Of a DNA stretch of 64,000 nucleotides, positions 8,332 through 27,215 are shown piece after piece (positions within the stretch are counted from its first letter, which is position 1; every line of letters begins with the position of its first letter). The DNA lies in assembly GCF_005160265.1 (NCBI RefSeq), contig NZ_CP039865.1:2256828-2320827 (forward strand), in the 5' to 3' direction. The position numbers and the translations under genes were made by a program. Below the pieces are notes generated by a model. That model made no database searches. It worked only from the letters and a program-made list of their open reading frames with translations, and was not told the origin of the DNA. Source of the stretch: Phreatobacter aquaticus (GTDB taxonomy: Bacteria; Pseudomonadota; Alphaproteobacteria; Rhizobiales; Phreatobacteraceae).

Positions 8332-9150
8332 ATGACCAAAGCAAGGGTTGTCCTGATCACGGGCGCGTCGTCCGGCATCGGCCGCGCGACTGCTACACTC
8401 CTCGCGGAGACAGGCCACGTCGTCTATGGCACAAGCCGAAACCCCGACCGGCACGCCAGTGCCTGGCGGATGATTGCGCTGGACGTCTGCGACGATGCCT
8501 CGGTTGCGGGCGCGGTCGCCTTGGTGCTCGCCGAGCAGGGCCGGATTGACGCGGTCGTCAACAATGCCGGCCTCGTTCTGTCCGGTGCGATCGAGGACAC
8601 GTCGCTGGACGAGGCTCGTCGTGAATTCGAGACCAACGTCCTCGGCATTGTCCGCGTCGCCAAGGCGGTATTGCCCACTATGCGGGCACGCAGGTCCGGC
8701 GTGATCGTCAATGTTGGCTCGCTCGCAGGCCGGGTCGGCATGCCGTTCCAGGGGCTCTACAGTGCCAGCAAGTTCGCGGTCGAGGGGCTGACTGAGGCGC
8801 TGCGCCAGGAGGTGGCAGGCTTCGGTGTCACCGTGGCGCTGGTCGCGCCGGGCGATACAGCAACGGGCGTCGTCGCCAATCGGGTCCGGGTGGCGGATGC
8901 ATCCCTTCCAACCTCTGCCTATCGCGCCGATTTCGAACGCGTGGTCGCAAGCTTCGAGCGGGACGAACAAGCTGGCTCGGCTCCCGAACAGGTGGCGCGT
9001 GTCATTGCAGCAATCGTCGAGGGACGCTCAACAGCGCCCCGTCATGTCATCGGACCTGTCGGCCAGCGTATCCTCGTCGGCATCCGCCCCTTCGTACCGA
9101 CGCGTATTTTCCAATGGGGAATGGCGCGCTATTTCGGTCTCGGCACCTGA
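8332..9150 (+). CDS. Short-chain dehydrogenase/reductase, candidate 3-ketosphinganine reductase-like enzyme
   Basis: 272 aa classical SDR. The cofactor motif TGASSGIG is at residues 10-17, NNAG at about 77-80, and the catalytic triad is S130, Y143, K147 (YSASK). An uncharged C-terminal stretch (VGIRPFVPTRIFQWGMARYFG) could touch the membrane, as in lipid-acting SDRs. It lies 130 bp upstream of the serine palmitoyltransferase gene on the same strand, so reduction of a 3-keto sphingoid or ceramide intermediate is an attractive guess. Classical SDRs are too diverse for a substrate call, and the CerR-like protein at 20.7 kb is a competing candidate for that step. Confidence 0.85.
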   Translation: MTKARVVLITGASSGIGRATATLLAETGHVVYGTSRNPDRHASAWRMIALDVCDDASVAGAVALVLAEQGRIDAVVNNAGLVLSGAIEDTSLDEARREFETNVLGIVRVAKAVLPTMRARRSGVIVNVGSLAGRVGMPFQGLYSASKFAVEGLTEALRQEVAGFGVTVALVAPGDTATGVVANRVRVADASLPTSAYRADFERVVASFERDEQAGSAPEQVARVIAAIVEGRSTAPRHVIGPVGQRILVGIRPFVPTRIFQWGMARYFGLGT

Positions 9151-9221
9151 CGCCCTGATCCTTGGCCGCCCGGCCGCATTTTGGCCGGCAGCTTGCTTGC
9201 ATCGAGACGGACCACTATAGC

Positions 9222-9235
9222 GTCACTGCAGTGAC
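9222..9235. promoter_or_regulatory. Perfect 14-bp palindrome in front of the serine palmitoyltransferase gene
   Basis: GTCACTGCAGTGAC is its own reverse complement and lies 46 bp upstream of the ATG of the serine palmitoyltransferase gene, in a 130-bp gap after the SDR gene. This fits an operator for a dimeric regulator. No regulator gene is adjacent, and no second copy was noticed in the window. Confidence 0.35.
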
Positions 9236-9280
9236 ATATGCCGAATGGCCAGTTATTTTTTCTAAGGCTTGTCCTCGCCC

Positions 9281-10540: not shown

Positions 10541-10948
10541 TCACATCGCGACGGCGGCTTCCGCCATCGCGATCACCTTCGCATCGGAGTTCCGCAGGAT
10601 CAGCCGGAGCGTCAAGGAGCGTCCGCTCTCGAGGTCGCTGACCTGCACCACGCGCGCGCTGACGGCGAGGCTGTCGCCTGCGAGCAGCGGTGCTGCGAAC
10701 CTGCACGACAGTTTGCCGATCTGTCCTTCGGGAAACCACTTGGCGAGCGCCTGATCGGCATAGGCCATCATCAGCATGCCCTGGACGACAGTGCCCGGCA
10801 GCCCGATGGCCCGCGCGGCTTCGGCATCGACATGGATCGGATTGTCGTCTCCGGATGCAAGCGCATAGGCGGCGATGTCGCTCTGCGTGATCGGCCCATA
10901 CCGCTGCTCGGGCAGGGCAGTCCCGACGGGGAAGCGGTCGTCGCTCAT
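10541..10948 (-). CDS. MaoC-like hotdog dehydratase
   Basis: 135 aa, single hotdog domain. The hydratase motif SGDDNPIHVDAEAA (catalytic Asp/His) is followed by GTVVQGMLMMAY, typical of (R)-specific enoyl hydratases/dehydratases. It is the last gene of the ACP-ketosynthase operon, its ATG overlapping the upstream stop by 4 bp. A role in a dedicated elongation cycle, dehydrating a 3-hydroxyacyl-ACP, is likely. Convergent with spt; only 6 bp separate the two stops. Confidence 0.82.
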   Translation of the reverse strand: MSDDRFPVGTALPEQRYGPITQSDIAAYALASGDDNPIHVDAEAARAIGLPGTVVQGMLMMAYADQALAKWFPEGQIGKLSCRFAAPLLAGDSLAVSARVVQVSDLESGRSLTLRLILRNSDAKVIAMAEAAVAM

Positions 10949-11322
10949 GCCATCAACCGTAGCAGCGAGTGCAGGATCGCCACGGGCTCGCCCGATTGGT
11001 CCTCAACCGTTGCGTCGATGGTGACATGGATGTCGTCCGTGCGCCGGCCTTCGACCTGGATCGTCAAGGGAAGCCCGATGGGCAGCGACTTGATCGAGGT
11101 GATGGTTTGCAACTCATGGACGGGCAATGCGCTCGGCCGATCCGAGGCAAGGCCTGCGATCAAAGCGATGATCCGGGGATCTGTCAGCCAGCGGATCGGA
11201 AAGGTCGTCGGCAGCCGCGCGTCCTCGCCGGATTGCCCGACCGCCATGGCGAAGGCCTGGACCTGATCCGCCTGCGCGATCACCTCGATGGCGAGGTGAG
11301 CCACGCCGCCGACCTGGCTCAC
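10945..11322 (-). CDS. Hotdog-fold protein, partner dehydratase-like
   Basis: 125 aa from GTG 11322, which overlaps the ketosynthase stop (GTGA). It contains FPIRWLTDPRIIALIAGL and ends IDATVEDQSGEPVAILHSLLRLM, consistent with the substrate-side half of a hotdog heterodimer. It lacks the Asp/His motif of the next gene, so the two probably act as a pair with one catalytic and one non-catalytic domain. The longer frame up to 11424 lies inside the ketosynthase and was not used. Family call is moderate. Confidence 0.6.
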   Translation of the reverse strand: MSQVGGVAHLAIEVIAQADQVQAFAMAVGQSGEDARLPTTFPIRWLTDPRIIALIAGLASDRPSALPVHELQTITSIKSLPIGLPLTIQVEGRRTDDIHVTIDATVEDQSGEPVAILHSLLRLMA

Positions 11323-12533
11323 TGGGCGCTTCCAAACACCAGTGCGGCGTTGATGCCGCCGAAGGCGAAGGAATTGTTCAGAACGTGCCGGATCTTGCCG
11401 GGCCTTCCGACATTGGGCACGCAATCGATCGGGCAGTTCGGATCGGCCTCAAGAAAATTGATCGTCGGCGGCACGAAGCTCTCTTCCATCGCGCGGATCG
11501 AGATCACCGCTTCCATCGCGCCGGCCGCACCCAGGGTGTGGCCGTGGATCGGCTTGGTCGAACTGACCGGCACTTGGCCAAGCCTGTTCCCGAAGATCCG
11601 CCCGAGGGCCTCGCTCTCGGTCGTATCGTTCAGCACAGTCGCCGTGCCATGTGCGTTGACATAATCGATGTCGTTTGAATCGATCCCTGCATCATCGATC
11701 GCCGCCACCATGGCATTGGTGGCGCCATCGACGTCAGGACGCAGCATGTCCCGCGCATCGCTGGTGGTGCCATAGCCGAGAATGCGCGCCCGGATGCGGG
11801 CCCCGCGTGCGACCGCAAGCTCCTCCGCCTCGATGACCAGCATGGCTGCGCCTTCGCCGAGCAGCAGACCGTTGCGCCCCTTGGAGAAGGGGCGGCACAG
11901 GGTCGGCGACAGCACGCGCATCACTTCCCAGCCCTTCATGCCGCCGGGCGTGACGATGGCTTCCGTGCCGCCCACGATGACGCGGTCGGTCATGCCGGCC
12001 CGCACCATCTGGGTGGCGATGCCGAGGGCCTGCGATGACGACGCACAGGCGCTCGAAATCACGAAGCTGGTGCCGGTGCACCCATAGGTCATGCCGATAT
12101 TGGAGGCGGATGCGCTGGTCATCGCCCGAGGGACGGTCAGCGGATCCGGGCGTTTGCCTTCGAGCAGCATGGTGCGGCTCGATTCCTCGATCGTCTGCAG
12201 GCTGCCGATCCCTGTCCCGACGATGACCGAGGTCCGCGGCCCAAAGGGACCTGCTTCGGCAAGGCCGGCATCTGTGACTGCCTCTTTGGCGGCGATCATC
12301 GCCATCATGGTGACGCGATCGAGAAAGGCCGTCTTCTGGTTCGGAAAGAACCGCGCCAGGTCAAAATCATGGAGTTGAGCGGCAACCTTGATGAGATTGC
12401 CGTACTCGTAGTCCAGCATGACAGTCCGTGCACCGGAAACGCCTTCAGCCGCGGCATTCCAGAGCAAATCGACGCCAATTCCGGCCGTGCTGATCGCACC
12501 AAGGCCGGTGACGACAACGGAACGCTGTGTCAC
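11319..12533 (-). CDS. Beta-ketoacyl-ACP synthase, FabF/NodE-like
   Basis: 404 aa condensing enzyme extending acyl-ACP with malonyl-ACP. The Cys-His-His triad is intact: C163 (SSACASSS), H295 (NAHGTATVLND) and H332 (STKPIHGHTLGAAG). GTG start one base after the ACP stop. Pairing of an orphan ACP with a KAS II-type enzyme recalls rhizobial NodF-NodE, which make a special acyl chain. Here the neighbours suggest a tailored acyl-ACP for serine palmitoyltransferase or the ceramide N-acyl group, which is inference. Confidence 0.9.
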   Translation of the reverse strand: MTQRSVVVTGLGAISTAGIGVDLLWNAAAEGVSGARTVMLDYEYGNLIKVAAQLHDFDLARFFPNQKTAFLDRVTMMAMIAAKEAVTDAGLAEAGPFGPRTSVIVGTGIGSLQTIEESSRTMLLEGKRPDPLTVPRAMTSASASNIGMTYGCTGTSFVISSACASSSQALGIATQMVRAGMTDRVIVGGTEAIVTPGGMKGWEVMRVLSPTLCRPFSKGRNGLLLGEGAAMLVIEAEELAVARGARIRARILGYGTTSDARDMLRPDVDGATNAMVAAIDDAGIDSNDIDYVNAHGTATVLNDTTESEALGRIFGNRLGQVPVSSTKPIHGHTLGAAGAMEAVISIRAMEESFVPPTINFLEADPNCPIDCVPNVGRPGKIRHVLNNSFAFGGINAALVFGSAQ

Positions 12534-12534: not shown

Positions 12535-12813
12535 TCAGGTCTTCTTTCCGGCCAGAATCTGTTCCTTGAGGACCGCGATCAAGCCGCCGACATCCTTCAC
12601 CTGCGCCAGACTTTCGTCCATCGGGATATAGACCGAGAATTTCTCCTCGATGGCCGCGAGGATCATCATGTAGTCGACGCTGGCGATATTGAGCGATTCC
12701 AGAGTCGTTTCAGGCCCGACACCCGCGAGATCGACCATGCCTTCCTGGGCGATCACGGTGATCAGGTCCTGCGTCAACTGGTCATCCCCGAAGGGCGATG
12801 CTGTCCCGCTCAT
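12535..12813 (-). CDS. Dedicated acyl carrier protein
   Basis: 92 aa, acidic. The 4'-phosphopantetheine site is predicted at S45 in SLNIASVDYMMIL, where the usual Asp before Ser is Ala (ASVD instead of DSLD), while the following helix II (AAIEEKFSVYI) is normal. It is first in the operon with the ketosynthase and hotdog genes. Sphingolipid-producing alphaproteobacteria carry a separate ACP (AcpR) beside spt, and this is the natural counterpart. The main fatty-acid ACP would be encoded elsewhere. Confidence 0.85.
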   Translation of the reverse strand: MSGTASPFGDDQLTQDLITVIAQEGMVDLAGVGPETTLESLNIASVDYMMILAAIEEKFSVYIPMDESLAQVKDVGGLIAVLKEQILAGKKT

Positions 12814-12997: not shown

Positions 12998-13624
12998 ATG
13001 AGCGAAGTCCGCATGCTGACCCGTCGTGAAATCCCATTGCTGTCCGCCCTGTTCGCCCTCGGTGGCAGCGTTGGCGCCGTTGCGCAGGATGATCGCCTGC
13101 CCGCCATCGCCGTGCGTGGATCGGAGGTGACGGTCAGCCGCCAGCTGATCATTGCCCGGCCGGATCTTCCCGTGCCCGCCGATCCCGGAATGCTCTTTTA
13201 TGTCCAGCATTCGATCAACAAGAACCAGATCGTCTACGCGGCGCGCCAGAACGCGGCTGGCAAGCTCGATCGGGACGAACCAGTCGAGGCGTTCTGGCGT
13301 CGTTTTGATGAGGATGGCCGGCGGCGCGCTCTGACCTTCTTCGAGCGTGTCTTTGCCTTCGGGGTCCGTGTCTCGCCGCTGCCGGATGAGCGCTTTCAGG
13401 CGCGGATCGCAGGATATCGCGACCGGGGCATCGTGGTTGACCTCGACGGCGCAGGGAAGCCGCGCGGGTTGCTGACGGTTGGTCAGCGCACGGTTCGTCT
13501 CGTTTATGCCTATGCCGTTGCCGATGACAGCGGCTTCATCCCCAAGGTCCACCATGTCGATTTCCATGGCTTCGATATCGCTTCGGGCGAGGCTATCCGC
13601 GAGCGTATCCGTCTCGACATGTGA
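12998..13624 (+). CDS. DUF4833 protein, probably exported
   Basis: 208 aa. A short N-terminal hydrophobic stretch (IPLLSALFALGGSVGAVAQ) ends in a plausible signal-peptidase site, so the protein is likely periplasmic; ATG 13013 (MLTRREIP) is an equally good start. The body shows the DUF4833 pattern MLFYVQHSINKNQIVYAARQ, with KVHHVDFHGFDI near the end. The family has no known function. Its position between the ACP operon and the GT32-LptG-LptF operon suggests a periplasmic role in the same lipid pathway. Confidence 0.7.
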   Translation: MSEVRMLTRREIPLLSALFALGGSVGAVAQDDRLPAIAVRGSEVTVSRQLIIARPDLPVPADPGMLFYVQHSINKNQIVYAARQNAAGKLDRDEPVEAFWRRFDEDGRRRALTFFERVFAFGVRVSPLPDERFQARIAGYRDRGIVVDLDGAGKPRGLLTVGQRTVRLVYAYAVADDSGFIPKVHHVDFHGFDIASGEAIRERIRLDM

Positions 13625-13645: not shown

Positions 13646-14404
13646 CTACGACCAGCCGAAATCATGCCAGATTGACGTCGGGAATGGGTTGGGCAGGCGG
13701 TTGCGCTCGATCAACCGACGCTTGAGCGAGGGGCCTGGCCCTTCGCCTTTCCACGAGCCCAGGAAGTGATGGCGGCACATCACGCGGGCGCGGGTCGGGG
13801 CGAAATCGGCGAAGACGTCCGGTGGCACCCAGCATATCTGCTTGAGAACCCGCACGTCCTTTGGGCGCTCGGCGTAGAATATGCGCGTGAGGGCTTTTGG
13901 CCCGGTCGCATCCTCGATGTCGCCGATCCTCGCAACCGACCTTGTCCTCAGGTGGTCGACAACCCGGTCGACCACGCTGCGCAAGAACGGGTGACCGGGC
14001 GGGGCCGCGAAGATGCAATTGGCGATCTGGAACGGCTGGTCATAGCCGAGTTCCTGTTGGCGGGTTCGGGTGACATGGGCTTCGACACCGAAGATGGCGC
14101 TGTCCGAGCCGTAGAATTGCGACAGCGGAGCCAGACACTCCATGTCCATGTCAGCGTAGAAGCCGCCGACCTTGAGCACGGCCAGGAGGCGGAAAAGGTC
14201 GGCTTTCAGAACTGGAAAGGCCAGTTCATCGAAAATCTGGAGATAGTCCGGAAATGCGTCCCGGACGAAGTCACGCATCCGGTCGTCATCGTAGAAGCGC
14301 AACTCCATCGTGGGGTTCAGCGCGAGAAAGCTCGCCTGCATCGCCCGCAGATCGGCTGGCAGTTCGGTCGATTTCCAGGTCTGGTGCAGGATCGGCGGTA
14401 TCAC
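13646..14404 (-). CDS. GT32-type glycosyltransferase with DXD motif
   Basis: 252 aa from GTG 14404, 10 bp after the LptG stop with GAAGG as ribosome site. It begins IPPILHQTWKSTELP and has the family core KADLFRLLAVLKVGGFYADMD, with the metal/sugar-nucleotide DXD at D85 and D87. GT32 includes yeast OCH1 and the mannosyl-inositol-phosphorylceramide synthases SUR1/CSG1, as well as many bacterial polysaccharide enzymes. In this locus sugar transfer to inositol phosphorylceramide is a specific, testable guess. No membrane segment is obvious. Confidence 0.82.
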   Translation of the reverse strand: MIPPILHQTWKSTELPADLRAMQASFLALNPTMELRFYDDDRMRDFVRDAFPDYLQIFDELAFPVLKADLFRLLAVLKVGGFYADMDMECLAPLSQFYGSDSAIFGVEAHVTRTRQQELGYDQPFQIANCIFAAPPGHPFLRSVVDRVVDHLRTRSVARIGDIEDATGPKALTRIFYAERPKDVRVLKQICWVPPDVFADFAPTRARVMCRHHFLGSWKGEGPGPSLKRRLIERNRLPNPFPTSIWHDFGWS

Positions 14405-14414
14405 GGTGCGGCCT

Positions 14415-15635
14415 TCATGATGCAGCCGGCTGCAGGGAGCCTGGCCGTCGGTCGTTGGGCGGGATCGCGGGTGTGAGGCGGACCAACAACAGCAGGGTCG
14501 CGGCAATGGTCGCGACCGGGATCAGCCAGCCGGCGAGAATCGGAGCCACATAGCCATATTCGCCGAGCCACACGATCAAATGAGTGGCGACATGGACAAA
14601 ATACCCGGTTAGTCCGATCCCGATCACGGATTTGAGCGTCGTGCGAAAGGCTATCAGCGTCATGGCGAGCGCCGAGGCGAGCCCCATCATGCCGAATGGC
14701 AGCAGGGCCTGGGCCATGCGGACCTGCTTCCAGGTGGCATAGGCGGCGTCGTTTGGAACGCCGTCGCCGAGCGCCGCGAGAGCAAGCAGTGTCTGTTGGG
14801 GCAGGAAGCGTGCTTCAATGGCGAAATTGGCCAGCCAGAGGGGATCAAGCGGCAAAGGCAGCACCTCCTCGGTGAACCATTTGGCCTCGCCGATATTCGT
14901 CTGTTCGTCGCTTGGCAGGGGCGCGATCCAGCGGCTGCCGTCGATGAAGGTCCATTGACCGGCAACGGATGAGGGAACGGCCGAGCGCGCCTGGATTCGG
15001 CTGGTCATGCGGCCGGACGTTGAAATCTCATAGATATCGACATCAATCAGCCGGCTGTTGCGATAGTCGATCCGCGCTCGGATCAGGTGATTGTCCAGGG
15101 TGATCCAAGTGGCGTGCGCTTGCAGGCGCCGGTCGAAACGTCCCCCATATGAGCCGATGCCATTCTCGATCTGGTAGGCAACCGCCGCCGGTCTGAGCCA
15201 CATCAGGGCCGCGGTCTGAGCGATCCCGCATATCAGACCGAGGATCAGAAGCGGCATGAGAGTCTGGAGTGGAGTCCGTCCGCCGTTCCAGACGACCAGC
15301 CGCTCGCGCGTCTGCGTGAGGGTCACCTCTGACCAGAAGATGCCGAGGAACGTGCCCAGCGGCAGCAAGGTGCCGATCAGATCCGCGATCCGGAGCATGA
15401 TGTACCAGGCAACGTGAAGGGCTCTGCCAAGCGCGCTCTGGTCCGGCGCCTGGGCCAGAATGCGCTCGATGAGCGTTGCGAGGTCGAGCGTCAACGCGAT
15501 GACCAGCAGCGCAGCGACGACCGTCGCCGCATGGCGCGCATGGGAGATCGCCTGTATGCGGGTGTAGGTCCCGAAATAGACGGTCAGGAACCGTCGTTCC
15601 TCGCCCGGTGACGGTCGAAAGGAAGGTTTGCCCAT
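14415..15635 (-). CDS. LptG-like permease (LptF/LptG family), paralogous set
   Basis: 406 aa from ATG 15635, sharing one base with the stop of the LptF-like gene (TGATG). Membrane segments lie at about residues 35-60 and 80-110, then a large periplasmic beta-jellyroll region (IENGIGSYGG through DEQTNIGEAKWF), then three C-terminal segments ending GWLIPVATIAATLLLL. This is the LptF/G architecture: inner-membrane half-channels that lift a lipid out of the bilayer. Canonical lptF/lptG usually sit beside pepA and lptD genes; here they sit among sphingolipid genes, so I take them as paralogs for another lipid. Confidence 0.82.
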   Translation of the reverse strand: MGKPSFRPSPGEERRFLTVYFGTYTRIQAISHARHAATVVAALLVIALTLDLATLIERILAQAPDQSALGRALHVAWYIMLRIADLIGTLLPLGTFLGIFWSEVTLTQTRERLVVWNGGRTPLQTLMPLLILGLICGIAQTAALMWLRPAAVAYQIENGIGSYGGRFDRRLQAHATWITLDNHLIRARIDYRNSRLIDVDIYEISTSGRMTSRIQARSAVPSSVAGQWTFIDGSRWIAPLPSDEQTNIGEAKWFTEEVLPLPLDPLWLANFAIEARFLPQQTLLALAALGDGVPNDAAYATWKQVRMAQALLPFGMMGLASALAMTLIAFRTTLKSVIGIGLTGYFVHVATHLIVWLGEYGYVAPILAGWLIPVATIAATLLLLVRLTPAIPPNDRRPGSLQPAAS

Positions 15636-16828: not shown

Positions 16829-16957
16829 GGATGAGAGGCCTGGTTCCAGTTGGACGAGCCGCGCATTCGCGGCTTGCCTGTTTCGTGGGATCCGGACGAC
16901 ATGCCGGCTACAGACGGTGTATATGGTCCGCGCCAACGCCGACCAAGGGACCGGGCA

Positions 16958-18108: not shown

Positions 18109-18606
18109 ATGACCGGACGGGTGCCTTTGGATTGGCGCTTTCTGCGCGCGAACCCCGCACATGCCATAGCCCTATCGGGCGGCCTCGGGCTTGTCCCGGT
18201 CGCCCCGGGCACGTTCGGCGCGCTCGCTGGGCTCGCGATCGGCTGGGGCCTGCAGGCCGTGCCGCTCGCCGCGGCTATCATCCTGCTGATGCTGTTGGGG
18301 GCCGTCGGCGTTTGGGCCTGCGACGTCACCGCGCGCTCGGCCGGGGTCCATGATCACCAGTCAATCGTCATCGACGAGACCTGGGCCATGGCGGCAGTGG
18401 CTGCCTTGTCCCCGCCGGGTCCCGTCTGGCTGGTGATCGGCTTCGTGGCTTTCCGCGCCTTCGACATCGCCAAGCCCTGGCCCGTGAACTGGATCGACAC
18501 TCATGTCGAGGGCGGCTTCGGGATAATGGCCGATGATGGCGCCGCCGCAGTTCTCGCCGTGGCACTTATCCAGCTTGCCGCGCGCAGTGGCTGGGTGCCC
18601 GTCTGA
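18109..18606 (+). CDS. PgpA-family lipid phosphatase
   Basis: 165 aa membrane protein. The PgpA signatures are all present: GGLGLVPVAPGTFGALAG near residue 25, DHQSIVIDETWAM in the middle, and FRAFDIAKPWPVNWID with the acidic IMADDGAAA at the end. The classical reaction is dephosphorylation of phosphatidylglycerophosphate. It starts 14 bp after the ceramide-synthase-like gene and is therefore co-transcribed with a sphingolipid gene. Bacteroides inositol-lipid clusters also carry a PgpA homologue thought to convert phosphatidylinositol phosphate to phosphatidylinositol. Housekeeping PG synthesis cannot be excluded. Confidence 0.88.
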   Translation: MTGRVPLDWRFLRANPAHAIALSGGLGLVPVAPGTFGALAGLAIGWGLQAVPLAAAIILLMLLGAVGVWACDVTARSAGVHDHQSIVIDETWAMAAVAALSPPGPVWLVIGFVAFRAFDIAKPWPVNWIDTHVEGGFGIMADDGAAAVLAVALIQLAARSGWVPV

Positions 18607-20634: not shown

Positions 20635-20718
20635 GAACTCTCTCCAGGCGGTCGGGACGATCCTTACCGCCCGAGCGGCCCCCTTATACTTCATTGTCTC
20701 GTCATTTAAAGGGTTACC

Positions 20719-21687
20719 GTGCTGATCGTCACCGGAGCCACCGGCCTGCTCGGAAATGCCGTCATTCGCCGGGCTCTGGCCCGCCGGATGGACGTGACGG
20801 CTCTTGTTCGCCGGACCAGCCCGCGTCGCCCCCTCGATGGCCTCGCCCTCATTCGGATCGAAATCGATCTCTGCGCCGACTCGCTCGGCGCTGTCATCGG
20901 GCACGGCGACATTGTCGTCCATGCCGCTGCTCGTGTCGCAATAGGCCGGCGCCACCTGGACGCGTTTCGCCGCGACAACGTCGTGCCGACCGTCCGCCTG
21001 GCGGCTGCGTGCCGGCAGGCCGGCGCCCGCCTGGTCCATGTCTCGACCGTGGATACGTTGGCCTGGGGCACACGAGAGTGCCCTGGCGACGAGACACAAG
21101 GCGCGGTCGAACCGGTCGCCTCGGCTTATTCCATCTCAAAGCACGAGGCGGAGCGGGCGGTGCTTGCCGAAATGGCGTCAGGGCTCGATTCAGTCATGGT
21201 CCATCCGGGTTTCATGCTGGGCCCATGGGACTGGAAGCCCTCTTCTGGACGCATGCTGCTGGACGTCGCTCGGGCCCCGGTCGCCCTGGCGCCGCCCGGC
21301 GGCAACGACTTCTGCCATGTCGAGGATGTCGCAGATGCCGTGATCGAGGCGGGTCTTCGCGGTGATAGCGGCAGCCGCTATGTCCTCGGCGGCGAGGCGC
21401 TGACCTATGCGGACGCCTTTGCCATGATGCGGCGCGTCGCAGGCCGCGTGCCGCGCGTGGCGACTGCTCCAGCCTGGCTCGTCCAGACACTCGGCTGGAT
21501 CGGCGATGGCCTCGGCGCCATCACCGGGCGCGAGCCTGTCCTCAATTCGGTGAGTGCCGGTATCGCCTGCTTGCCCCACCATTTCTCGAGTGCCAGGGCC
21601 ATCCGCGACCTCGGCTATCATCCTCGTCCGGCCGAGATCGCCATGCGCGATGCGTGGGCCTGGTTCACCTCGAATGGCTACGCATGA
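20719..21687 (+). CDS. NAD-dependent epimerase-fold reductase, candidate ceramide reductase (CerR-like)
   Basis: 322 aa extended SDR. Cofactor motif TGATGLLG (5-12), active-site Y137 and K141 (YSISK), and the C-terminal [17 protein letters not shown] typical of the dihydroflavonol-reductase/HpnA-like branch. The Caulobacter enzyme that reduces the 3-keto group during ceramide synthesis is of this type. GTG start 20719; its stop overlaps the glycosyltransferase start by 4 bp (ATGA). A sugar-nucleotide epimerase or the hopanoid-linked HpnA are alternatives, but no hopanoid genes are nearby. Confidence 0.78.
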
Positions 21688-22853
21688 ACGCTTATCCCAC
21701 CAACGACTCACCCCGCGCCCTGCGAATCGCCCTGGTCAGCGACTGGTTCCTGCCGCGCCTTGGCGGCATCGAATTGCAGATGCGCGACCTTGCGCTGACG
21801 CTCATGGAGCGCGGCCATCAGGTCCGGGTGATCTGTGGGGTCGATGGTCCACCGCAGCAGGATGGTATCGATATCCTCAGGCTGCCGGGGCCTCGCTTGC
21901 CGGGCTTCGGCATCGCCTTCACGCCCGGTGTGTTTGCCGCCCTGCGGGCAATGGTCGGCCGCGACCAATACGACGTGCTGCACGTCCATTGCGGCAATGT
22001 GGCACCCATCGCCCATCACGCCATGCAGTTCGCCATGCGGGCGGGCATTCCGGCCGTCGCCACCTTCCACTCGGTGCTCAAGCATTTTGACCTGCCTCTG
22101 ATGCTGCTCGACAGGGTGCACGGCTATTCCCGGGGTGCGATTGGCTTCACCGCGGTCTCGTCCGTGGCCGCCAAGGCGATGCGGCCTCTGACGGCGAAGG
22201 CGCGGGTCGCGGTCATTCCCAACGGGATCGAACTCGATTGGTGGCGCGAGGGCAACGCGACGGATATCCGGCCTGTGCTGCCGCCTGTCGAGATCGTCGG
22301 CGTGATGCGGCTGCAAAAGCGCAAGCGCCCGCGGGTGCTGGTCGAGGCCTTCGCCAAGGCCATCGAGGGGCTGCCACCAGGTGCCGCTCGGCTGACGCTG
22401 ATCGGCGACGGCGATGAAGCGGGTGCGATCAGGACGATCGCCGCGCGCCACGGCATTTCGGATGCGATCAGCCTTCCGGGTGCGCTGTCGCGGGAAGCCA
22501 TTCGTTCCGTCCTTCGGCGTTCGCACGTTTTCGCGCTGGCCTCTCGGCTGGAAGCCTTCGGCATCGCCGCGCTCGAGGGCCTTGCCTGCGGCCTGCCGGT
22601 CGTGACCATGCGGATGTCGGGCGCGAGCGACTTCCTCACCCATGGGACCAATGCGCTGCTGGCGGATGACGATGGTGAGTTCGCAGCTCACCTTCGCCGC
22701 TTGATCACGGATGCCGGCTTTCGCTCACAACTCGCCGATGGCGCCTCGGCAAGGCCGCCAGGCGTCGACTGGACAGAGGTCGCCCCCCGCTACGAGGCGG
22801 AATATCGCGCGGCCATCGACCGCGTCAGGGCATCAGGCCTTGTCCGGCCGTGA
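21684..22853 (+). CDS. GT4-family glycosyltransferase
   Basis: 389 aa retaining glycosyltransferase of the GT-B fold. The N-terminal SDWFLPRLGGIELQMRDLA binds acceptor; the C-terminal donor site has VIPNGIELDWW, RLQKRKRPRVLVEAFAKA and the E-x7-E motif in SRLEAFGIAALEGLACGLP. This is the PimA/PimB-like family, which includes enzymes that add mannose to phosphatidylinositol. It is translationally coupled to the CerR-like gene, which favours a glycosylated sphingolipid or inositol-lipid product. Its C-terminus overlaps the convergent next gene by 21 bp. Confidence 0.88.
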   Translation: MNAYPTNDSPRALRIALVSDWFLPRLGGIELQMRDLALTLMERGHQVRVICGVDGPPQQDGIDILRLPGPRLPGFGIAFTPGVFAALRAMVGRDQYDVLHVHCGNVAPIAHHAMQFAMRAGIPAVATFHSVLKHFDLPLMLLDRVHGYSRGAIGFTAVSSVAAKAMRPLTAKARVAVIPNGIELDWWREGNATDIRPVLPPVEIVGVMRLQKRKRPRVLVEAFAKAIEGLPPGAARLTLIGDGDEAGAIRTIAARHGISDAISLPGALSREAIRSVLRRSHVFALASRLEAFGIAALEGLACGLPVVTMRMSGASDFLTHGTNALLADDDGEFAAHLRRLITDAGFRSQLADGASARPPGVDWTEVAPRYEAEYRAAIDRVRASGLVRP

Positions 22854-23822
22854 GCCATTGCGCGGCATGACGATGGCGAGATAGCCAAGCCCTGCGAAGG
22901 ACGCGAGAAACACGGCGGCGTGCTGCAACACGGCGGCGGCGGCGGCAACGCCGAGCGAAGCGCCCATGAACTGATATGAAAACGCGATTGCCGCCTCGAA
23001 AATCCCGAGATTGCCGGGCGAGATCGGCGCCAGCGTCGCCAGTCCAAGCACGGCAATGGTCAGGACCGCGAGCGGCACCGACGGCTCCATGCCGACCGCC
23101 ATCTGGATCATCAGCGCCGCAACGATCTCGGTCGCATCCTTGGCAATGGCGAGCAGCGTGACCGAAAGCCCGAGCAACGGGTGACGCATCGGCTCAAGAT
23201 GATCGATGAAACTGCCGACCGGCTCGGCGAAAGCGCCGATCCGGCCACCGATCCGTGCGCCCAGCGACCGGATGACCGCCCCGCCGCGGGCGACGACCAG
23301 CAGGCCCGCGACGAACAGCCCAATCACCACGGCGAGCGTCAGGGTGCCGGTCCTGAGCCAGTCCGGCGTGGGAACCAGCCAGACGGCTGCGGCCAGCACC
23401 GCGACCTTGGCGATGCCGGTCACCAGTTGGTCGACCGCATAGACCGACATGGCAGCGCTCGCCGGCAGGCGACCGCGCGTGATCAGGAAGGCGACCGATG
23501 CCACCGCCCCGGCGATCGGCACTGATATGTTGGTGGAGCCCGAGAGTGCCGTGACCTCTGCCATGCGCCCGAAGCTCGGCCGGTGGGCGGCCGGCGCCAG
23601 CAGCCACCATTGCAGGATCCAGAACGGCCATCCCGCCGCATTGATCAGCACCGCGGCGATGACCCAGCCCCAATGGGCGTCCTTGAAGGCGCGCAGGACC
23701 TCGTCCCAAGGCAGCGCAAAGGCGGCGTAGGCCGACATGGCGGCCAGCACCAGCCAGCCGGCGATCCACCACAGGCGGCGGTTGGGCGAACCCGATGAGG
23801 TCTGGTGCGCGGGCTCGCTCAA
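22833..23822 (-). CDS. UPF0104 / lysylphosphatidylglycerol-synthase-type membrane protein
   Basis: 329 aa with about eight hydrophobic segments, starting RRLWWIAGWLVLAAMSAYAA, and the family loop SISVP-like motif (TNISVPIAGAVASVAFL) and APISPGNLGIFEAAIAF near the C-terminus. The family matches the N-terminal flippase domain of MprF and the AglD-type proteins that accompany lipid glycosyltransferases. As last gene of an operon with a GT2-like transferase and a deacetylase, a flipping or lipid-handling role is plausible. Substrate not readable. Confidence 0.8.
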   Translation of the reverse strand: MSEPAHQTSSGSPNRRLWWIAGWLVLAAMSAYAAFALPWDEVLRAFKDAHWGWVIAAVLINAAGWPFWILQWWLLAPAAHRPSFGRMAEVTALSGSTNISVPIAGAVASVAFLITRGRLPASAAMSVYAVDQLVTGIAKVAVLAAAVWLVPTPDWLRTGTLTLAVVIGLFVAGLLVVARGGAVIRSLGARIGGRIGAFAEPVGSFIDHLEPMRHPLLGLSVTLLAIAKDATEIVAALMIQMAVGMEPSVPLAVLTIAVLGLATLAPISPGNLGIFEAAIAFSYQFMGASLGVAAAAAVLQHAAVFLASFAGLGYLAIVMPRNGSRPDKA

Positions 23823-24604
23823 GATGCGGCCAGGAGGGCCGGAGCGGCAGAGGCGGCGCGCATCTCATGCCCGAGATCGCGCATCGTCATGAAGCGGGCT
23901 CCACGCGCCTTGAAGAAGGAAATGACCGAATCCAAGGCATCGAGTGCCGGCTGCCCGGTGCGGAAGCGGCAATCATAGCGCAGCGTCTCCTGCGTCAGAT
24001 CGACGAACTCCCAGGGGTGCACGAACAGCACGACCGGATCGGCGAGCCGGCCAAGAAAATACTCGCGGACCAGTTTCGGAATGCGCAGCGCGCTCGATGT
24101 GATGGAGGCGGGGATGCGCAGGATATCGCGACCATTCTCGGCGCCCGGTACGTCCTTCTTGTACCTGGCCTGCGAGGAATCGAGGTCGAAACCTTCGTCC
24201 TCCAGGAGATCGAGATAGGGACCGGGAAACCGGAGATAGGGTGCGCGGAACGAGGTGACATCAGCGAACTCGCGCAACCGTGCGGCCGACCCGGAAATCT
24301 CCGCGGTGGCGCTCTCGCGCGACATCCAGTCGAACCGCTGGTGCGAGATGCCGTGGCAGCCAAGCTCGTGGCCGCGCGCGACGAGGTCGCGGACAGCCTC
24401 GGGGTGCAGCCGGGCCGTATCGCCGGTGGTGAAGAAGGTTGTCTTGATGCCCTGCCGCTCGAACAGGTCGAGCAACTTGGGCGAGCCCTCGGTGATGCCG
24501 CGCCATGTCCACAGGAACGGCGGGCAATCCGGTTCCATGTCGATGGTGATGGCGACGCGTGGCGGCTTGGGGCTGGAACTGGACATTGCGCGTGCCCTTA
24601 TCAC
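23819..24604 (-). CDS. Polysaccharide deacetylase (NodB homology domain)
   Basis: 261 aa. The NodB metal triad is present: D22 in AITIDMEPD and H84/H88 in GCHGISHQRF. A further conserved motif is FRAPYLRFPGPYL, and FVHPWEFVD near the C-terminus supplies the late His. It removes an N- or O-acetyl group from a sugar. No signal peptide is evident, so it may act in the cytoplasm on a lipid-linked sugar. An internal ATG at residue 7 is an alternative start. It lies 27 bp after the GT2-like gene and overlaps the UPF0104 gene by 4 bp. Confidence 0.86.
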   Translation of the reverse strand: MIRARAMSSSSPKPPRVAITIDMEPDCPPFLWTWRGITEGSPKLLDLFERQGIKTTFFTTGDTARLHPEAVRDLVARGHELGCHGISHQRFDWMSRESATAEISGSAARLREFADVTSFRAPYLRFPGPYLDLLEDEGFDLDSSQARYKKDVPGAENGRDILRIPASITSSALRIPKLVREYFLGRLADPVVLFVHPWEFVDLTQETLRYDCRFRTGQPALDALDSVISFFKARGARFMTMRDLGHEMRAASAAPALLAAS

Positions 24605-24631: not shown

Positions 24632-25477
24632 TCACCACCACGCGCGGAACGCGTTGATGGCGATGAGATCGTTGTGGCCGGAGCTGTTGGGGCCATCCGT
24701 CAGGGCCGCGAGCCCGGAGGCTCTGGTCTCGATCGGCAGGCCGCGGGCAGGGATGACCAGTCGCCTGACGCCGCGCCTGGCCATATGGCCGGAGAACCAG
24801 ACATCGTCGACGAACCGGCTTTCGGCAGGAAAGCCCTCGAAATCGTGGACCGCCCCGTCGAATGTGCCGGGCGGCACGAGATAGCCCCAGGTGCCGAGCA
24901 GGATATCGACCGGCTGCGGCTTGGCGAGTGCGGTCGCGAAGACATGGGGAAAGCGCTTGGGATGCCGGCCCTCGATAATGCTCCAGCCGCGCCAGCCGAT
25001 GGCCGCATGCCGGTCACGCCGATGCGCCGCGAGCAACTGCTCCAGGAAATCGACGGGATAGACCACGTCGTCGTCGACCACGACGATGGACGCGTCAGGC
25101 TCGGCGATGAGCGCCGGCAGAAGCTTGGTCGCGGGGCCTTCATCGGTGCAGGGCAGAACCTCGACGCCGGGGGGCAGCGGACCGGGATCAGGATAAGCCA
25201 GGCCCGAACGGCGCGACGTCGTGGGACGCCAAAGGATGATCCGGTCGGCGGCGATTGTCTGGTCGATCAGGCTCCTCAGAACCGGGCCGAGCAGGGTCAT
25301 GCGCTCGGGAACGGTGGTCAGCGAGACGACCAGCCTTTCGGGACGAGATGGAGCTGGGGCCTGTCCGGTATCGACCGGCTTGAAGAGCGATCCGCTCAGC
25401 CGTCGGGCCCGCCGGATATCCCGGATGAGCCGAAGCGGCGACATCCTGCGAAACCGGTTCAGCGCATTGCCGATCAT
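24632..25477 (-). CDS. Glycosyltransferase-like protein (GT2-type DDD motif)
   Basis: 281 aa. The N-terminus is basic; LVVSLTTVPERM at about residue 49 starts the nucleotide-binding fold, and the metal motif DDD (135-137, in IVVVDDDVVYP) is followed by RFVDDVWFSGHMARRGV, where the second Asp pair is the likely catalytic site. It resembles small glycosyltransferases of uncharacterised bacterial families. It heads the operon with the deacetylase and UPF0104 genes and is divergent from the CDP-alcohol phosphatidyltransferase. The donor sugar is unknown. Confidence 0.75.
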   Translation of the reverse strand: MIGNALNRFRRMSPLRLIRDIRRARRLSGSLFKPVDTGQAPAPSRPERLVVSLTTVPERMTLLGPVLRSLIDQTIAADRIILWRPTTSRRSGLAYPDPGPLPPGVEVLPCTDEGPATKLLPALIAEPDASIVVVDDDVVYPVDFLEQLLAAHRRDRHAAIGWRGWSIIEGRHPKRFPHVFATALAKPQPVDILLGTWGYLVPPGTFDGAVHDFEGFPAESRFVDDVWFSGHMARRGVRRLVIPARGLPIETRASGLAALTDGPNSSGHNDLIAINAFRAWW

Positions 25478-25590
25478 TGCATCCTCGTCGCGAAACGCGC
25501 ATTCACATGGCGCGCCCCTTCACCTCGCCCGATTTTTCGGGCAGTGAGACGGCCCTTATCATCATCGACGCCGAACGGGGAGGCGCCTTC

Positions 25591-26301
25591 ATGTTGCCGG
25601 ACCGGCTCACCCGCTTCCTTAGCGCCCTCGAGCGCGGAGTGTCACTGCAGGATATTGGCCGCAGCGCGTCGTTCAGCGCGGTCCTGTCCAGGGTGGCCTT
25701 GCTGCTGTCACGCACGGGCATCACGCCCAACACATTGACCCTGTTCTCTCTGGTGCCAGCGGCGGCAGCCGGGATCGCCGCGGCAACCGGTTCGCTGGCC
25801 TGGGCAGCCCTTTTCCTGCTGCTCAGCGGTGTCCTTGATCTGCTGGACGGGCCGCTTGCCCGCGCCACCGGCCGGACCACGCGTTTCGGCGCCTTGCTCG
25901 ATTCGACGCTCGACCGGGTTTCCGATGCCCTGCCGCTGCTCGGACTGACGGCGCTTTTTGCGCAGAGTGGCTCTGGTCTGGCCGCCATGGTTCCGGCCTT
26001 CACCCTGCTCACCGGCTACACGGTCTCCTATGTCCGCGCGCGCTGCGAAGGCCTTGCCGTCGCGCTGCCGCCGCTCTGGATGCGCCGCGGCGACCGCATG
26101 GTGCTGATGGCCCTGTCGCTGCTGGCTGGGGCCTTCGCTCTGCCGATCGCATTGGTTGGAACCGGCGTGGCCGGCGTCCTCAGCGCGCTTGCCGCTGCCG
26201 ATGCTCTGCGCGTCGCGCGTCGCGTCATCGAAGAGGGCGAACAGCTCCGCGAGATGCCGACGCCGGTCACCGATCCGGCCTCCGGCATCCGCGGCGCGTG
26301 A
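25591..26301 (+). CDS. CDP-alcohol phosphatidyltransferase, candidate phosphatidylinositol-phosphate synthase
   Basis: 236 aa inner-membrane enzyme. The full CDP-AP signature D-x2-DG-x2-AR-x8-G-x3-D-x3-D is seen at D83, D86, G87, A90, R91, G100, D104 and D108. It joins a CDP-linked lipid (CDP-diacylglycerol) to an alcohol. The presence of myo-inositol-phosphate synthase, and of the AUR1-like enzyme overlapping its stop, make inositol phosphate the most likely acceptor. I chose ATG 25591 because GGGGAGG lies 7 bp upstream; ATG 25507 would add 28 residues without homology. PgsA (glycerophosphate) or archaetidyl-type activity are alternatives. Confidence 0.85.
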   Translation: MLPDRLTRFLSALERGVSLQDIGRSASFSAVLSRVALLLSRTGITPNTLTLFSLVPAAAAGIAAATGSLAWAALFLLLSGVLDLLDGPLARATGRTTRFGALLDSTLDRVSDALPLLGLTALFAQSGSGLAAMVPAFTLLTGYTVSYVRARCEGLAVALPPLWMRRGDRMVLMALSLLAGAFALPIALVGTGVAGVLSALAAADALRVARRVIEEGEQLREMPTPVTDPASGIRGA

Positions 26302-27215
26302 TGGCGTCCCTCGTCGGTCACGTGAAAGGCCTCTGGGGGCCCTGGTGGTTTGTGCCGCTGGTGCCCACGCTGCATGCCGGTGTCATGGCGGCAGGCGGCG
26401 CGCCCAAGCCCGAATATTGGCTGATCGCCGCGATCGTTGCGGTGGCGGCCTACGCCACGCGCTGGACGCGCGATCTCGTCGTGATCGCGGCTCCCGCCAT
26501 TCTGGTCGCCCTCGCCTACGAGCTCCTGCGGCTGATCACGCCTCTGCTCGTTCGCCCCGAGCGCGTCTGGGGCTGCGAATTGCGTCAGATCGAACTGACG
26601 CTGTTCAGCGTCGGGCCTGACACGACGCTCTCGGACTTCTTCCAGGTCCACAACGCGGCGGTCTTCGACCTCTATTTCGCCATTCCCTACGCGGCCTTCC
26701 TCTATGTGATCGCCGCCTATGCCGCCGTGCTCTATTTCCGCGACCGGCCCCGCATGGAACTGCTCTTGTGGTCGTTTGCCATCGTGCACTTGATCGCCTT
26801 CGCCATCTGGATGGTCATGCCGGCGGCCCCACCCTGGTACATCCGCATGCATGGCTGCGCGATCGACATGTCGGCCCTGCCCAGCGCCGGGCGCCTGCTG
26901 CGGGTCGATGAATTGCTCGGCATTGGCTATTTCCGCGCCTTCTACAGCCGCACGGCCAATATTTTCGGCGCCATGCCGTCGCTGCACTGCGCCATGCCGA
27001 TCCTGACGCTGCTGGTCGCCTGGCCGAAGGCGACGTGGCGGACCCGTCCGATCCATCTCGTCTATGCGGCATCGATGGTGGTCGCCAGCATCTATCTCGA
27101 CCATCACTGGCTGCTGGATGGTCTCGCCGGCATGGTGGCCGCAGCAATTGCCGTCACCCTTGCCGGTTGGCTTCTGAAACAGAGAAGCCGGACCGCGAAC
27201 GGCCCGGCTTCCTGA
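26301..27215 (+). CDS. PAP2-family membrane transferase, candidate inositol-phosphorylceramide synthase (AUR1-like)
   Basis: 304 aa with about six to eight membrane helices. The two PAP2 motifs have the AUR1 form: FGAMPSLHCAMP with H229, and YLDHHWLLDG with H269 and D273. The His-to-Asp spacing of four is that of the AUR1 catalytic pair, and GYFRAFYSRTANIFGAMP before the first motif resembles fungal IPC synthase. It would move phosphoinositol from phosphatidylinositol to ceramide. The ATG shares one base with the phosphatidyltransferase stop (TGATG). A simple phosphatidate phosphatase is the alternative, but the linked MIPS and ceramide genes argue for IPC synthase. Confidence 0.8.
   Translation: MASLVGHVKGLWGPWWFVPLVPTLHAGVMAAGGAPKPEYWLIAAIVAVAAYATRWTRDLVVIAAPAILVALAYELLRLITPLLVRPERVWGCELRQIELTLFSVGPDTTLSDFFQVHNAAVFDLYFAIPYAAFLYVIAAYAAVLYFRDRPRMELLLWSFAIVHLIAFAIWMVMPAAPPWYIRMHGCAIDMSALPSAGRLLRVDELLGIGYFRAFYSRTANIFGAMPSLHCAMPILTLLVAWPKATWRTRPIHLVYAASMVVASIYLDHHWLLDGLAGMVAAAIAVTLAGWLLKQRSRTANGPAS
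27184..27211 (+). terminator. Hairpin at the end of the AUR1-like gene
   Basis: GAAGCCGG pairs with CCGGCTTC across an 12-nt loop in the last codons of the gene, followed by a weak T-containing stretch. It could end the phosphatidyltransferase operon before the convergent protease gene. The T-run is poor. Confidence 0.35.

What the first reader, a model, noticed from the sequence alone, without database searches (positions are those of the whole stretch)
8332..27215. Candidate alphaproteobacterial inositol-phosphosphingolipid locus
Seen: spt-type enzyme with PPATP loop, dedicated ACP, ketosynthase, two hotdog proteins, a two-lobed GNAT acyltransferase, CerR-like epimerase, Ino1-type inositol-phosphate synthase, CDP-AP phosphatidyltransferase, PgpA phosphatase and AUR1-type PAP2, all within 19 kb. 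Known: sphingolipid genes spt/ACP/CerR/GNAT ceramide synthase occur together in Caulobacter, and Bacteroides inositol-lipid clusters combine MIPS, CDP-AP, PgpA and PAP2. Here both sets are joined, giving a route serine to ceramide plus glucose 6-phosphate to phosphatidylinositol to inositol phosphorylceramide. A complete IPC pathway in one proteobacterial locus is, as far as I can tell, not standard knowledge.
Basis: partly seen in the sequence, partly recalled or inferred. Interest (0 to 1): 0.92.

Follow-up and report, generated by a model that had tools for sequence, protein, structure and literature searches.

The report
Bacterial locus for inositol sphingolipids
A 19-kilobase gene cluster in the environmental bacterial genus Phreatobacter carries what looks like every step to build the inositol-ceramide membrane lipids known from fungi and plants, plus likely sugar-adding enzymes and an export pump, which makes it a new bacterial variant of a known pathway.

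Summary
The locus encodes serine palmitoyltransferase (SPT), an ACP, a ketosynthase, a MaoC dehydratase, a tandem-GNAT ceramide-synthase candidate, two reductase candidates, Mycobacterium-type inositol-phosphate synthase (MIPS), a PI-phosphate-synthase-type CDP-alcohol transferase, PgpA, and a PAP2 protein whose only significant PDB relative is yeast AUR1. The second 'hotdog' protein was not confirmed.
All 12 sampled Phreatobacter genomes carry the IPC synthase; 0 of 109 other order members do. The locus is syntenic in the 11 congeners, apart from insertions (one of ~34 kb) and three stretches cut at one end.
Best reading: de novo inositol phosphorylceramide (IPC), probably glycosylated and exported. 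Enzyme identities are well supported; the product is untested.
Unexpected: the alphaproteobacterial IPC synthases nest inside a Myxococcota clade; and the acyl-ACP synthetase AasR, reported always to accompany SPT in Rhodobacteria, was not found (0 of 12), while 11 of 11 chosen control SPT-bearing Alphaproteobacteria have it. A KAS/dehydratase/ACP set stands beside SPT instead.
Novelty: new variant of a known kind.

The parts
8332..9150 (+). SDR, 3-ketodihydrosphingosine reductase candidate (KdsR-like)
   Evidence: NF049977 284 bits (cut-off 400), best of 220 families; seen beside SPT in 7 of 11 congeners (L018-L022, L024, L136) and as a fragment in L014; the fetched stretch ended before it in L016, L017, L023
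9269..10534 (+). Serine palmitoyltransferase
   Evidence: NF047599 458 bits; best PDB Sphingomonas-type SPT 2x8u 355 bits against AONS/KBL/ALAS below 200; PPATP and GTFSK motifs
10541..10948 (-). MaoC-type hotdog dehydratase
   Evidence: PF01575 2e-23
10945..11319 (-). Small conserved protein, possible second hotdog (start uncertain)
   Evidence: No family hit; hhalign against MaoC 35%; found in all 11 congeners
11319..12533 (-). Beta-ketoacyl-ACP synthase (FabF-type)
   Evidence: PF00109/PF02801, SACASS motif
12535..12813 (-). Dedicated acyl carrier protein
   Evidence: PF00550 22.7 bits; 79-86% identical in congeners
12998..13624 (+). DUF4833, signal-peptide-like N terminus (by eye), function unknown
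   Evidence: PF16117 9.8e-27; also between CDP-AP and PAP2 in 18 of 30 Bacteroidota loci
13646..14437 (-). Gly_transf_sug (GT32-type) glycosyltransferase, start uncertain
   Evidence: PF04488 5.4e-10; only PDB hit up to E 1: initiation-specific alpha-1,6-mannosyltransferase 9n3s 1.2e-8; DMD motif
14415..15650 (-). LptG-like permease, second copy (start uncertain)
   Evidence: PF03739 4.6e-22; TIGR04408; genome has a separate LptF/G-family pair
15635..16831 (-). LptF-like permease, second copy (start uncertain)
   Evidence: PF03739 5.8e-17; TIGR04407
16850..18094 (+). Tandem-GNAT acyltransferase, bacterial ceramide synthase candidate
   Evidence: AF2 pLDDT 81.8, tandem-GNAT folds; homologue within about 1.3 kb of SPT in 8 of 10 Bacteroidota loci with an SPT hit and in 2 Opitutaceae loci
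18091..18606 (+). PgpA-family phosphatase, candidate PI-phosphate phosphatase
   Evidence: PF04608 8.6e-37; only PgpA in the genome in 12 of 12, always in this locus; 7 of 109 other order members have one; overlaps GNAT by 4 nt
18789..19505 (-). LptB-like ATPase
   Evidence: TIGR04406 309.9 bits, above cut-off 240; another LptB in the genome was not searched for
19549..20694 (-). myo-inositol-phosphate synthase (MIPS/Ino1), start uncertain
   Evidence: TIGR03450 549 bits; PDB inositol-3-phosphate synthase 1gr0 7.8e-151
20719..21687 (+). NAD-dependent epimerase-family protein (HpnA-like), CerR candidate
   Evidence: TIGR03466 191 bits, PF01370
21654..22853 (+). GT4 glycosyltransferase, PimA/BshA-like
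   Evidence: PDB best: PI mannosyltransferase PimA 4n9w 3.6e-15 and 2gej 7.2e-15, closely followed by BshA-type 5d00 8e-15; NCBIfam best EpsE, BshA, MshA, all far below cut-off
22833..23822 (-). LPG_synthase_TM flippase-like membrane protein
   Evidence: PF03706 6.2e-29
23819..24604 (-). Polysaccharide-deacetylase-family (CE4) enzyme
   Evidence: PF01522 9.9e-20
24632..25477 (-). GT2-like protein
   Evidence: PF00535 0.0014, below cut-off; 55-59% identity to L030/L034/L036 and 50% to L038 homologues
25477..26301 (+). CDP-alcohol phosphatidyltransferase, PI-phosphate synthase type
   Evidence: NF040950 117 bits, NF045883 98 bits, BT1523 model 83 bits, PgsA 28 bits (all below cut-offs); PDB PI-phosphate synthases; D..DG..AR..G...D...D motif
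26298..27215 (+). AUR1-type inositol phosphorylceramide synthase
   Evidence: NF052609 125.6 bits, cut-off 480; PDB AUR1 7.8e-20, next molecule 0.16; PSxH and HHxxxD histidines and aspartate invariant in 12 of 12

Best explanation
The locus makes inositol phosphorylceramide (IPC) de novo and probably decorates and exports it. Inferred route: the KAS/MaoC/ACP set supplies a long acyl-ACP; SPT condenses it with serine to 3-ketosphinganine; the KdsR-like SDR and/or the CerR-like epimerase reduces it; the tandem-GNAT ceramide synthase N-acylates it to dihydroceramide. MIPS turns glucose 6-phosphate into inositol phosphate; the CDP-alcohol transferase joins this to CDP-diacylglycerol to give PI-phosphate; PgpA removes the phosphate to give PI; the AUR1-type PAP2 moves phosphoinositol from PI to ceramide, giving IPC and diacylglycerol. 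The GT4, GT32-type and GT2-like transferases and the deacetylase then probably add and trim sugars. The flippase-like protein and the LptB/LptF/LptG-like exporter probably carry the product towards the outer membrane. Shown here: gene identities by profile, key motifs, genus-wide conservation of the set. Inferred: the substrate of every enzyme, glycosylation, flipping and export.
For: PAP2: PDB hits are yeast AUR1 at 7.8e-20 and otherwise nothing below 0.1, alignment spanning the PSxH and HHxxxD motifs; NF052609 125.6 bits. CDP-AP: PIP-type synthase models beat PgsA by about 70-90 bits, PDB PIPS. MIPS: 1gr0 7.8e-151. SPT: 355 bits to the nearest solved SPT, PPATP conserved. PAP2 in 12 of 12 genus members and 0 of 109 other order members. 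Gene set and order conserved in 11 congeners, with one ~34-kb split, smaller insertions and three stretches cut at one end. PgpA is rare in the order (7 of 109 others) but single-copy and in this locus in 12 of 12. The putative ceramide synthase and PgpA overlap by 1-4 nt in 9 of 9 congeners where the script called both, coupling the two halves. A second LptF/LptG-family pair besides the housekeeping pair in 11 of 12. GT4 best PDB PimA (BshA-type nearly equal), GT32-type only PDB hit a fungal-type mannosyltransferase. A related alphaproteobacterial MAG locus (L030) has a sphingolipid delta4-desaturase-like gene beside the IPC synthase.
Against: No lipid data. Most NCBIfam scores lie below the curated cut-offs (SPT 458/500, PhinosDhcerSyn 126/480, KdsR 284/400, PIP synthase 98/170), so these are divergent relatives, not certified equivalogs. 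PgpA is the only PgpA in the genome and could be the general PGP phosphatase. GT acceptors are unknown. No LptC/LptA gene was seen in the locus. In L038 (Rhodobacteraceae MAG) no SPT hit lies within the 20.8-kb locus, although other pieces do. In L030/L034/L036 the SPT-position enzyme belongs to another alpha-oxoamine-synthase lineage, so the partner SPT is not constant. The AUR1-type gene was found in 1 of 385 sampled class members, the window's own.
Confidence: 0.8

Rival explanations
1. The GT4, deacetylase, GT32-type and GT2-like genes glycosylate phosphatidylinositol (PI-mannoside-like glycerolipids) or build a lipid-linked glycan, and the Lpt-like exporter carries that; IPC itself stays unglycosylated.
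For: GT4 best PDB hit is PimA, which acts on PI, with BshA-type enzymes nearly equal; GT4 and CE4 enzymes are common in glycan pathways.
Against: The genes sit among sphingolipid genes in the congeners. A Gly_transf_sug gene also sits beside MIPS, with GNAT within about 3 kb, in SPT loci of two other alphaproteobacterial families where no AUR1-type gene was found. SUR1, the fungal IPC mannosyltransferase, is a GT32 (PMC13161914 passages).
Confidence: 0.25
2. The CDP-AP, PgpA and MIPS make only PI; the PAP2 protein is a lipid phosphatase; the sphingolipid half makes an unrelated sphingolipid.
For: PAP2 enzymes are often phosphatases; the NCBIfam score is under the cut-off, and phosphatidylglycerophosphatase B is a weak second hit (19.6 bits).
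Against: The PAP2 profile finds AUR1 and no PAP2 phosphatase in the PDB; halves interleaved and coupled; the Bacteroides BT1522 protein, a homologue by its AUR1 similarity, is shown to make IPC (PMC9246714, PMC8791184 passages).
Confidence: 0.1
3. The head group is another phospho-polyol (for example a phosphoglycerol or another cyclitol phosphate) placed on ceramide.
For: CDP-alcohol transferases vary in specificity; Caulobacter uses phosphoglycerate head groups (PMC12275187 passages); a five-membered-cyclitol-phosphate synthase is the second PDB hit of the MIPS.
Against: MIPS matches inositol-3-phosphate synthase 1gr0 with 506 bits over 354 residues against 200 bits for the cyclitol enzyme; CDP-AP is nearest to inositol-phosphate enzymes; none of the 21 locus products hits a kinase or a CTP transferase family.
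Confidence: 0.06

Closest known systems
Bacteroides thetaiotaomicron inositol-lipid operon BT1522-BT1526
   Same: MIPS, PI-phosphate synthase, PgpA-type phosphatase and AUR1-type PAP2 in one cluster; an LPG-synthase-type gene nearby (BT_1521) (passages)
   Different: SPT is elsewhere (BT_0870); no Lpt-like exporter or glycosyltransferases are named in the passages read; the IPC synthase here is only 26-33% identical to the 30 Bacteroidota ones; MIPS here is nearest the mycothiol-type model
Caulobacter crescentus sphingolipid region CC_1152-CC_1168
   Same: SPT, ACP, CerR, a ceramide synthase, second LptF/LptG copies and a potential flippase in one region (passages)
   Different: Caulobacter has AasR, phosphoglycerate head groups and LptC2; here AasR was not found, the head-group genes are inositol genes, and an LptB-like gene lies in the locus
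Yeast AUR1 / SUR1 pathway (IPC, MIPC)
   Same: AUR1-type PAP2 with the same motifs; a GT32-type glycosyltransferase nearby
   Different: Bacterial PIP-synthase/PgpA route to PI, GNAT-type ceramide-synthase candidate; mannosylation not shown
Myxococcota CDP-AP/PAP2 clusters (L026, L028, L029, L032, L033, L035, L037)
   Same: Closest IPC synthases outside Alphaproteobacteria (46-53%), with a CDP-AP beside them in 6 of 7
   Different: No SPT or MIPS hit within these seven fetched loci, some of them short

Membership tests
Bacterial IPC pathway (BT1522-1526 type) | AUR1-type PAP2 with PSxH...HHxxxD | tested here: met
Bacterial IPC pathway (BT1522-1526 type) | CDP-AP with PI-phosphate synthase motif, not PgsA | tested here: met
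Bacterial IPC pathway (BT1522-1526 type) | Linked MIPS and PgpA-type phosphatase | tested here: met
Bacterial IPC pathway (BT1522-1526 type) | IPC present in the lipidome | not testable with these tools
   No lipid data
Rhodobacterial (Caulobacter-type) ceramide locus | SPT of the alphaproteobacterial clade | tested here: met
   9 of 12 Phreatobacter SPTs in the tree group with 17 alphaproteobacterial SPTs, 100/100 (the tool flags long branches)
Rhodobacterial (Caulobacter-type) ceramide locus | Acyl-ACP synthetase AasR | tested here: not met
   0 of 12 Phreatobacter against 11 of 11 control SPT genomes at E<=1e-40 (in 6 of the 12 only the best 50 of 53-83 first-look candidates were scored; controls chosen by me from 48 other SPT-positive genomes)
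Rhodobacterial (Caulobacter-type) ceramide locus | Dedicated ACP and GNAT-type ceramide synthase | tested here: met
   activity not tested, and no direct comparison with the Caulobacter proteins was made
Rhodobacterial (Caulobacter-type) ceramide locus | Phosphoglycerate head-group genes in the locus | tested here: not met
   None of the 21 locus products hits a kinase or nucleotidyltransferase family; not searched elsewhere in the genome
Lpt-type lipid exporter | LptF and LptG homologues distinct from the housekeeping pair, with an LptB-like ATPase | tested here: met
   a second LptB elsewhere was not searched for
Lpt-type lipid exporter | LptC/LptA/LptD partners | not tested
   None seen among the locus genes; genome not searched

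The most novel reading that the evidence does not exclude
Phreatobacter builds glycosyl-inositol-phosphoceramides, like those of fungi and plants, from a locus that joined an alphaproteobacterial sphingolipid half to an IPC synthase shared with Myxococcota, feeds SPT by a private ketosynthase/dehydratase/ACP set instead of AasR, and sends the lipid to its outer membrane beside LPS through a second Lpt-like machine.
Probability: 0.4. Interest if true: 0.82.

Novelty: new variant of a known kind. Interest (0 to 1): 0.62.

Why it matters
Inositol sphingolipids are central to fungal and plant membranes but are described as rare in bacteria (passages of PMC9246714). An alphaproteobacterial locus with the whole set in one place would allow heterologous reconstruction of the pathway, give a gene-level lead on how Alphaproteobacteria could make phosphoinositol-dihydroceramide (Novosphingobium acidiphilum gave such a signal without known genes, PMC9246714), suggest a second way of feeding acyl-ACP to SPT, and make sphingolipid export by an Lpt-like machine testable by gene deletion.

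Tried and rejected
Rejected: PgsA identity for the CDP-AP, and a generic PAP2 phosphatase. Rejected: that IPC replaces LPS because LPS genes are lost; LpxC is in 11 of 12 genomes, the miss being an 85% complete one. Considered and not supported: DUF4833 as an LptC-type beta-jellyroll; Foldseek gave no match at E<=0.001. Inconclusive: second hotdog. Limited: PAP2 in the class sample was found only in the window's own genome, 1 of 385, with at most the 6 best first-look candidates scored per genome, so class-wide co-occurrence rests on SPT with MIPS: 9 genomes carry both, of 49 and 31 (Fisher one-sided p 0.009; 0.022 without the window's genome; genomes are related, so p is only indicative), linked within about 10 kb in 3 of the 9 (window, G485, G376; positions). 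Rows dropped: in the PAP2 tree 5 of 12 Phreatobacter sequences (L018-L022) were left out because the fetched stretch ended before the stop codon, and L025/L027/L031 as copies of L014/L019/L023 (so L019's copy L027 went too); in the SPT tree 3 of 12 (L016, L017 cut; L023 partial, not entered). My 'myxo' label includes records titled only delta proteobacterium (L044, L045, and L058 outside the nested set). Not made: trees of CDP-AP and MIPS. Literature: ten searches listed no paper on an alphaproteobacterial IPC gene cluster, on Phreatobacter sphingolipids, or naming DUF4833; several listings were cut (for example 12 of 5,476, 10 of 42) and the library holds open-licence papers only.
Full report
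Identity of the source. The window is G000:C1:2256828-2320827 of a 4.97-Mb single-contig genome. Its genus (g1, 12 genomes sampled) includes genomes whose contigs match, by length, records named Phreatobacter (121,531 bases: NZ_JALHMP010000011.1; 347,035 bases: NZ_JAPZTZ010000004.1). I therefore call the genus Phreatobacter; this rests on contig lengths.

What is there. Profile searches name 20 of the 21 genes between 8332 and 27215 (table in parts; the GT2-like hit is below its cut-off). Sphingolipid half: KdsR-like SDR, SPT, MaoC dehydratase, a small protein without a family hit, FabF-type ketosynthase, ACP, GNAT acyltransferase, HpnA/CerR-like epimerase. Inositol half: MIPS, CDP-alcohol transferase, PgpA, AUR1-type PAP2. 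Further genes: LptB, LptF and LptG homologues, a GT4, a Gly_transf_sug (GT32-type) transferase, a GT2-like protein, a CE4 deacetylase, a flippase-like LPG_synthase_TM protein, DUF4833. Genes lie in short alternating operons, many overlapping by a few bases; the putative ceramide synthase and PgpA overlap by 4 nt here and by 1-4 nt in 9 of 9 congeners where the script called both (start codons chosen by the script).

Enzyme tests. SPT scores 355 bits to the nearest solved SPT and under 200 to AONS/KBL/ALAS structures, and keeps PPATP. CDP-AP scores 117 bits (archaetidylinositol-phosphate synthase), 98 (PIP synthase), 83 (BT1523) and 28 (PgsA), all below the curated cut-offs; its PDB relatives are PIP synthases and related enzymes. 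The PAP2 profile hits AUR1 at 7.8e-20 and nothing else below 0.1; the motif histidines and aspartate are invariant in 12 of 12. MIPS aligns to inositol-3-phosphate synthase 1gr0 at 7.8e-151. The GNAT model (pLDDT 81.8) matches tandem-GNAT structures, the best three with E about 1-2e-13 and TM 0.54-0.58 by query length. GT4: best PDB PimA 3.6e-15, BshA-type 8e-15, so the acceptor is not decided. Gly_transf_sug: only PDB hit an initiation-specific alpha-1,6-mannosyltransferase, 1.2e-8; OCH1 and SUR1, the fungal IPC mannosyltransferase, are both GT32 (passages of PMC13161914).

Conservation. The IPC synthase is in 12 of 12 Phreatobacter and 0 of 109 other sampled order members. Ten congeneric loci keep gene order and strand, some with insertions of up to a few kb; the fetched stretch ended before SPT in two (L016, L017) and before the SDR in one (L023). 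In the eleventh (G008) the two halves lie on either side of about 34 kb of other DNA: SDR to PgpA at 3925-3937 kb, LptB to PAP2 at 3970-3979 kb. PgpA occurs once per genome, in this locus, in 12 of 12, but in only 7 of 109 other order members, one of these below the family cut-off. LptF/LptG family: four copies in 11 of 12; G001 (89% complete) shows only the locus pair. LpxC is present in 11 of 12, so LPS is probably made too.

AasR. The published rule is that SPT in Rhodobacteria co-occurs with an ACP and an acyl-CoA synthetase (start of the abstract of PMC9386255 in the listing). An AMP-binding enzyme with one shared motif (my own pattern) lies in 8 of the 15 SPT-bearing alphaproteobacterial stretches fetched. 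Searched with one of these (L149), 11 of 11 control SPT-bearing genomes match at 46-59% identity (best match each), while 0 of 12 Phreatobacter and 0 of 4 other alphaproteobacterial genomes with this IPC synthase (MAGs of untold completeness) do (E<=1e-40). The controls were chosen by me from 48 other SPT-positive genomes; in 6 of the 12 Phreatobacter only the 50 best first-look candidates were scored. I infer that the KAS/MaoC/ACP set replaces AasR. A KAS homologue also lies within a few kb of GNAT in L030, L034, L036 and L038.

Where the IPC synthase comes from. In a tree of 84 IPC synthases the 11 alphaproteobacterial ones (7 of 12 Phreatobacter, 4 MAGs) form one group (96/92) inside a set of 18 with seven Myxococcota sequences (100/98) and a set of 36 with 25 labelled Myxococcota, two of these titled only delta proteobacterium (100/99). 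This is what a transfer from Myxococcota would give; the root is unproven. SPT of Phreatobacter instead groups with other alphaproteobacterial SPTs (100/100), and the enzyme in the same place in L030/L034/L036 belongs to another lineage together with two Opitutaceae sequences (the tool warns of long branches). So the halves seem to have been combined more than once. CDP-AP and MIPS were not put in trees.

Class-wide co-occurrence. In 385 sampled genomes of the class, SPT is in 49 (E<=1e-75), MIPS in 31 (E<=1e-40), both in 9 (Fisher one-sided 0.009; 0.022 without the window's genome), the AUR1-type PAP2 only in the window's genome. SPT and MIPS are linked in three: the window, G485 and G376. 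In G485 (L134) the order is SPT, two LptF/LptG-family genes, CDP-AP, NTP transferase, MIPS, Gly_transf_sug, an AasR-like gene, epimerase, GNAT, fatty-acid hydroxylase; in G376 (L135) Gly_transf_sug, MIPS, GNAT, hydroxylase, SPT, with the CDP-AP relative on another contig. That CDP-AP is found in only these 2 of 385 (E<=1e-20). The NTP transferase is nearest to a bifunctional inositol-1-phosphate cytidylyltransferase model (123 bits, cut-off 580), as in the putative alternative Bacteroides cluster (passages of PMC9246714); but Caulobacter CpgD, a phosphoglycerate enzyme, also resembles that family (passages of PMC12275187), so the head group there is open.

Comparison with print. B. thetaiotaomicron BT1522-1526 makes IPC (passages of PMC9246714, PMC8791184). 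Caulobacter has second LptC/F/G genes in its sphingolipid region, proposed but not tested as exporters (passages of PMC11324152). Ceramide phosphoinositol is reported for Myxococcus xanthus, and a phosphoinositol-dihydroceramide-like lipid without known genes for Novosphingobium acidiphilum (passages of PMC9246714). My ten searches listed no description of this locus.

Verdict. Enzyme identities strong, pathway to IPC likely (0.8), glycosylation and export plausible, product unproven. A new variant: known enzyme kinds in a new joint arrangement and lineage, with a probably different acyl-ACP supply.

Noticed in passing
window 12998-13624 and L059, L069, L070, L072, L074, L075, L078, L079, L081, L084, L091, L093, L095, L097, L099, L101, L102, L104: DUF4833, a beta-rich protein with a signal-peptide-like start (by eye), lies between CDP-AP and PAP2 in 18 of the 30 Bacteroidota loci and in the Phreatobacter locus; no paper in the library names it, and its predicted fold (pLDDT 80.7) has no PDB match at E<=0.001.
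   Followed up: partly
L134 (G485), L135 and L163 (G376): A second kind of SPT-MIPS-linked alphaproteobacterial locus without an AUR1-type PAP2 detected: MIPS, Gly_transf_sug, GNAT, fatty-acid hydroxylase, and in L134 also CDP-AP, an inositol-phosphate-cytidylyltransferase-like NTP transferase and LptF/LptG-family genes.
   Followed up: partly
L030:10294-11253: A fatty-acid desaturase with a sphingolipid delta4-desaturase domain (PF08557) lies between the IPC synthase and MIPS in an uncultured Rhizobiales MAG; L034 has an ORF of the same length at the same place, not scanned.
   Followed up: partly
L030, L034, L036, L080, L088: The SPT-position enzyme of these IPC-type loci is an alpha-oxoamine synthase outside the alphaproteobacterial SPT clade (33-34% to the window SPT; tree), possibly another SPT lineage.
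   Followed up: partly
G008:C1:3937000-3970000: In the 7.35-Mb congener the locus is split by about 34 kb of other DNA between PgpA and LptB; no locus gene was found in the insert, whose own content was not analysed.
   Followed up: partly
L063 (Comamonas sp. KCTC 72670): Its IPC synthase sits among Myxococcus sequences in the tree: recent transfer or contamination of the assembly.
   Followed up: no
window 27250-29508: A 752-aa protein with repeated N-terminal stretches (by eye) and a trypsin-like domain flanks the PAP2 gene and is conserved (74-77% in partial alignments) beside it in 10 of 11 congeners; no hit in the short fetched stretch of G003.
   Followed up: no
window 266-4922: Oxidoreductase with Fer4 domains followed by pyruvate:ferredoxin-oxidoreductase-type subunits, not part of the lipid locus.
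   Followed up: no
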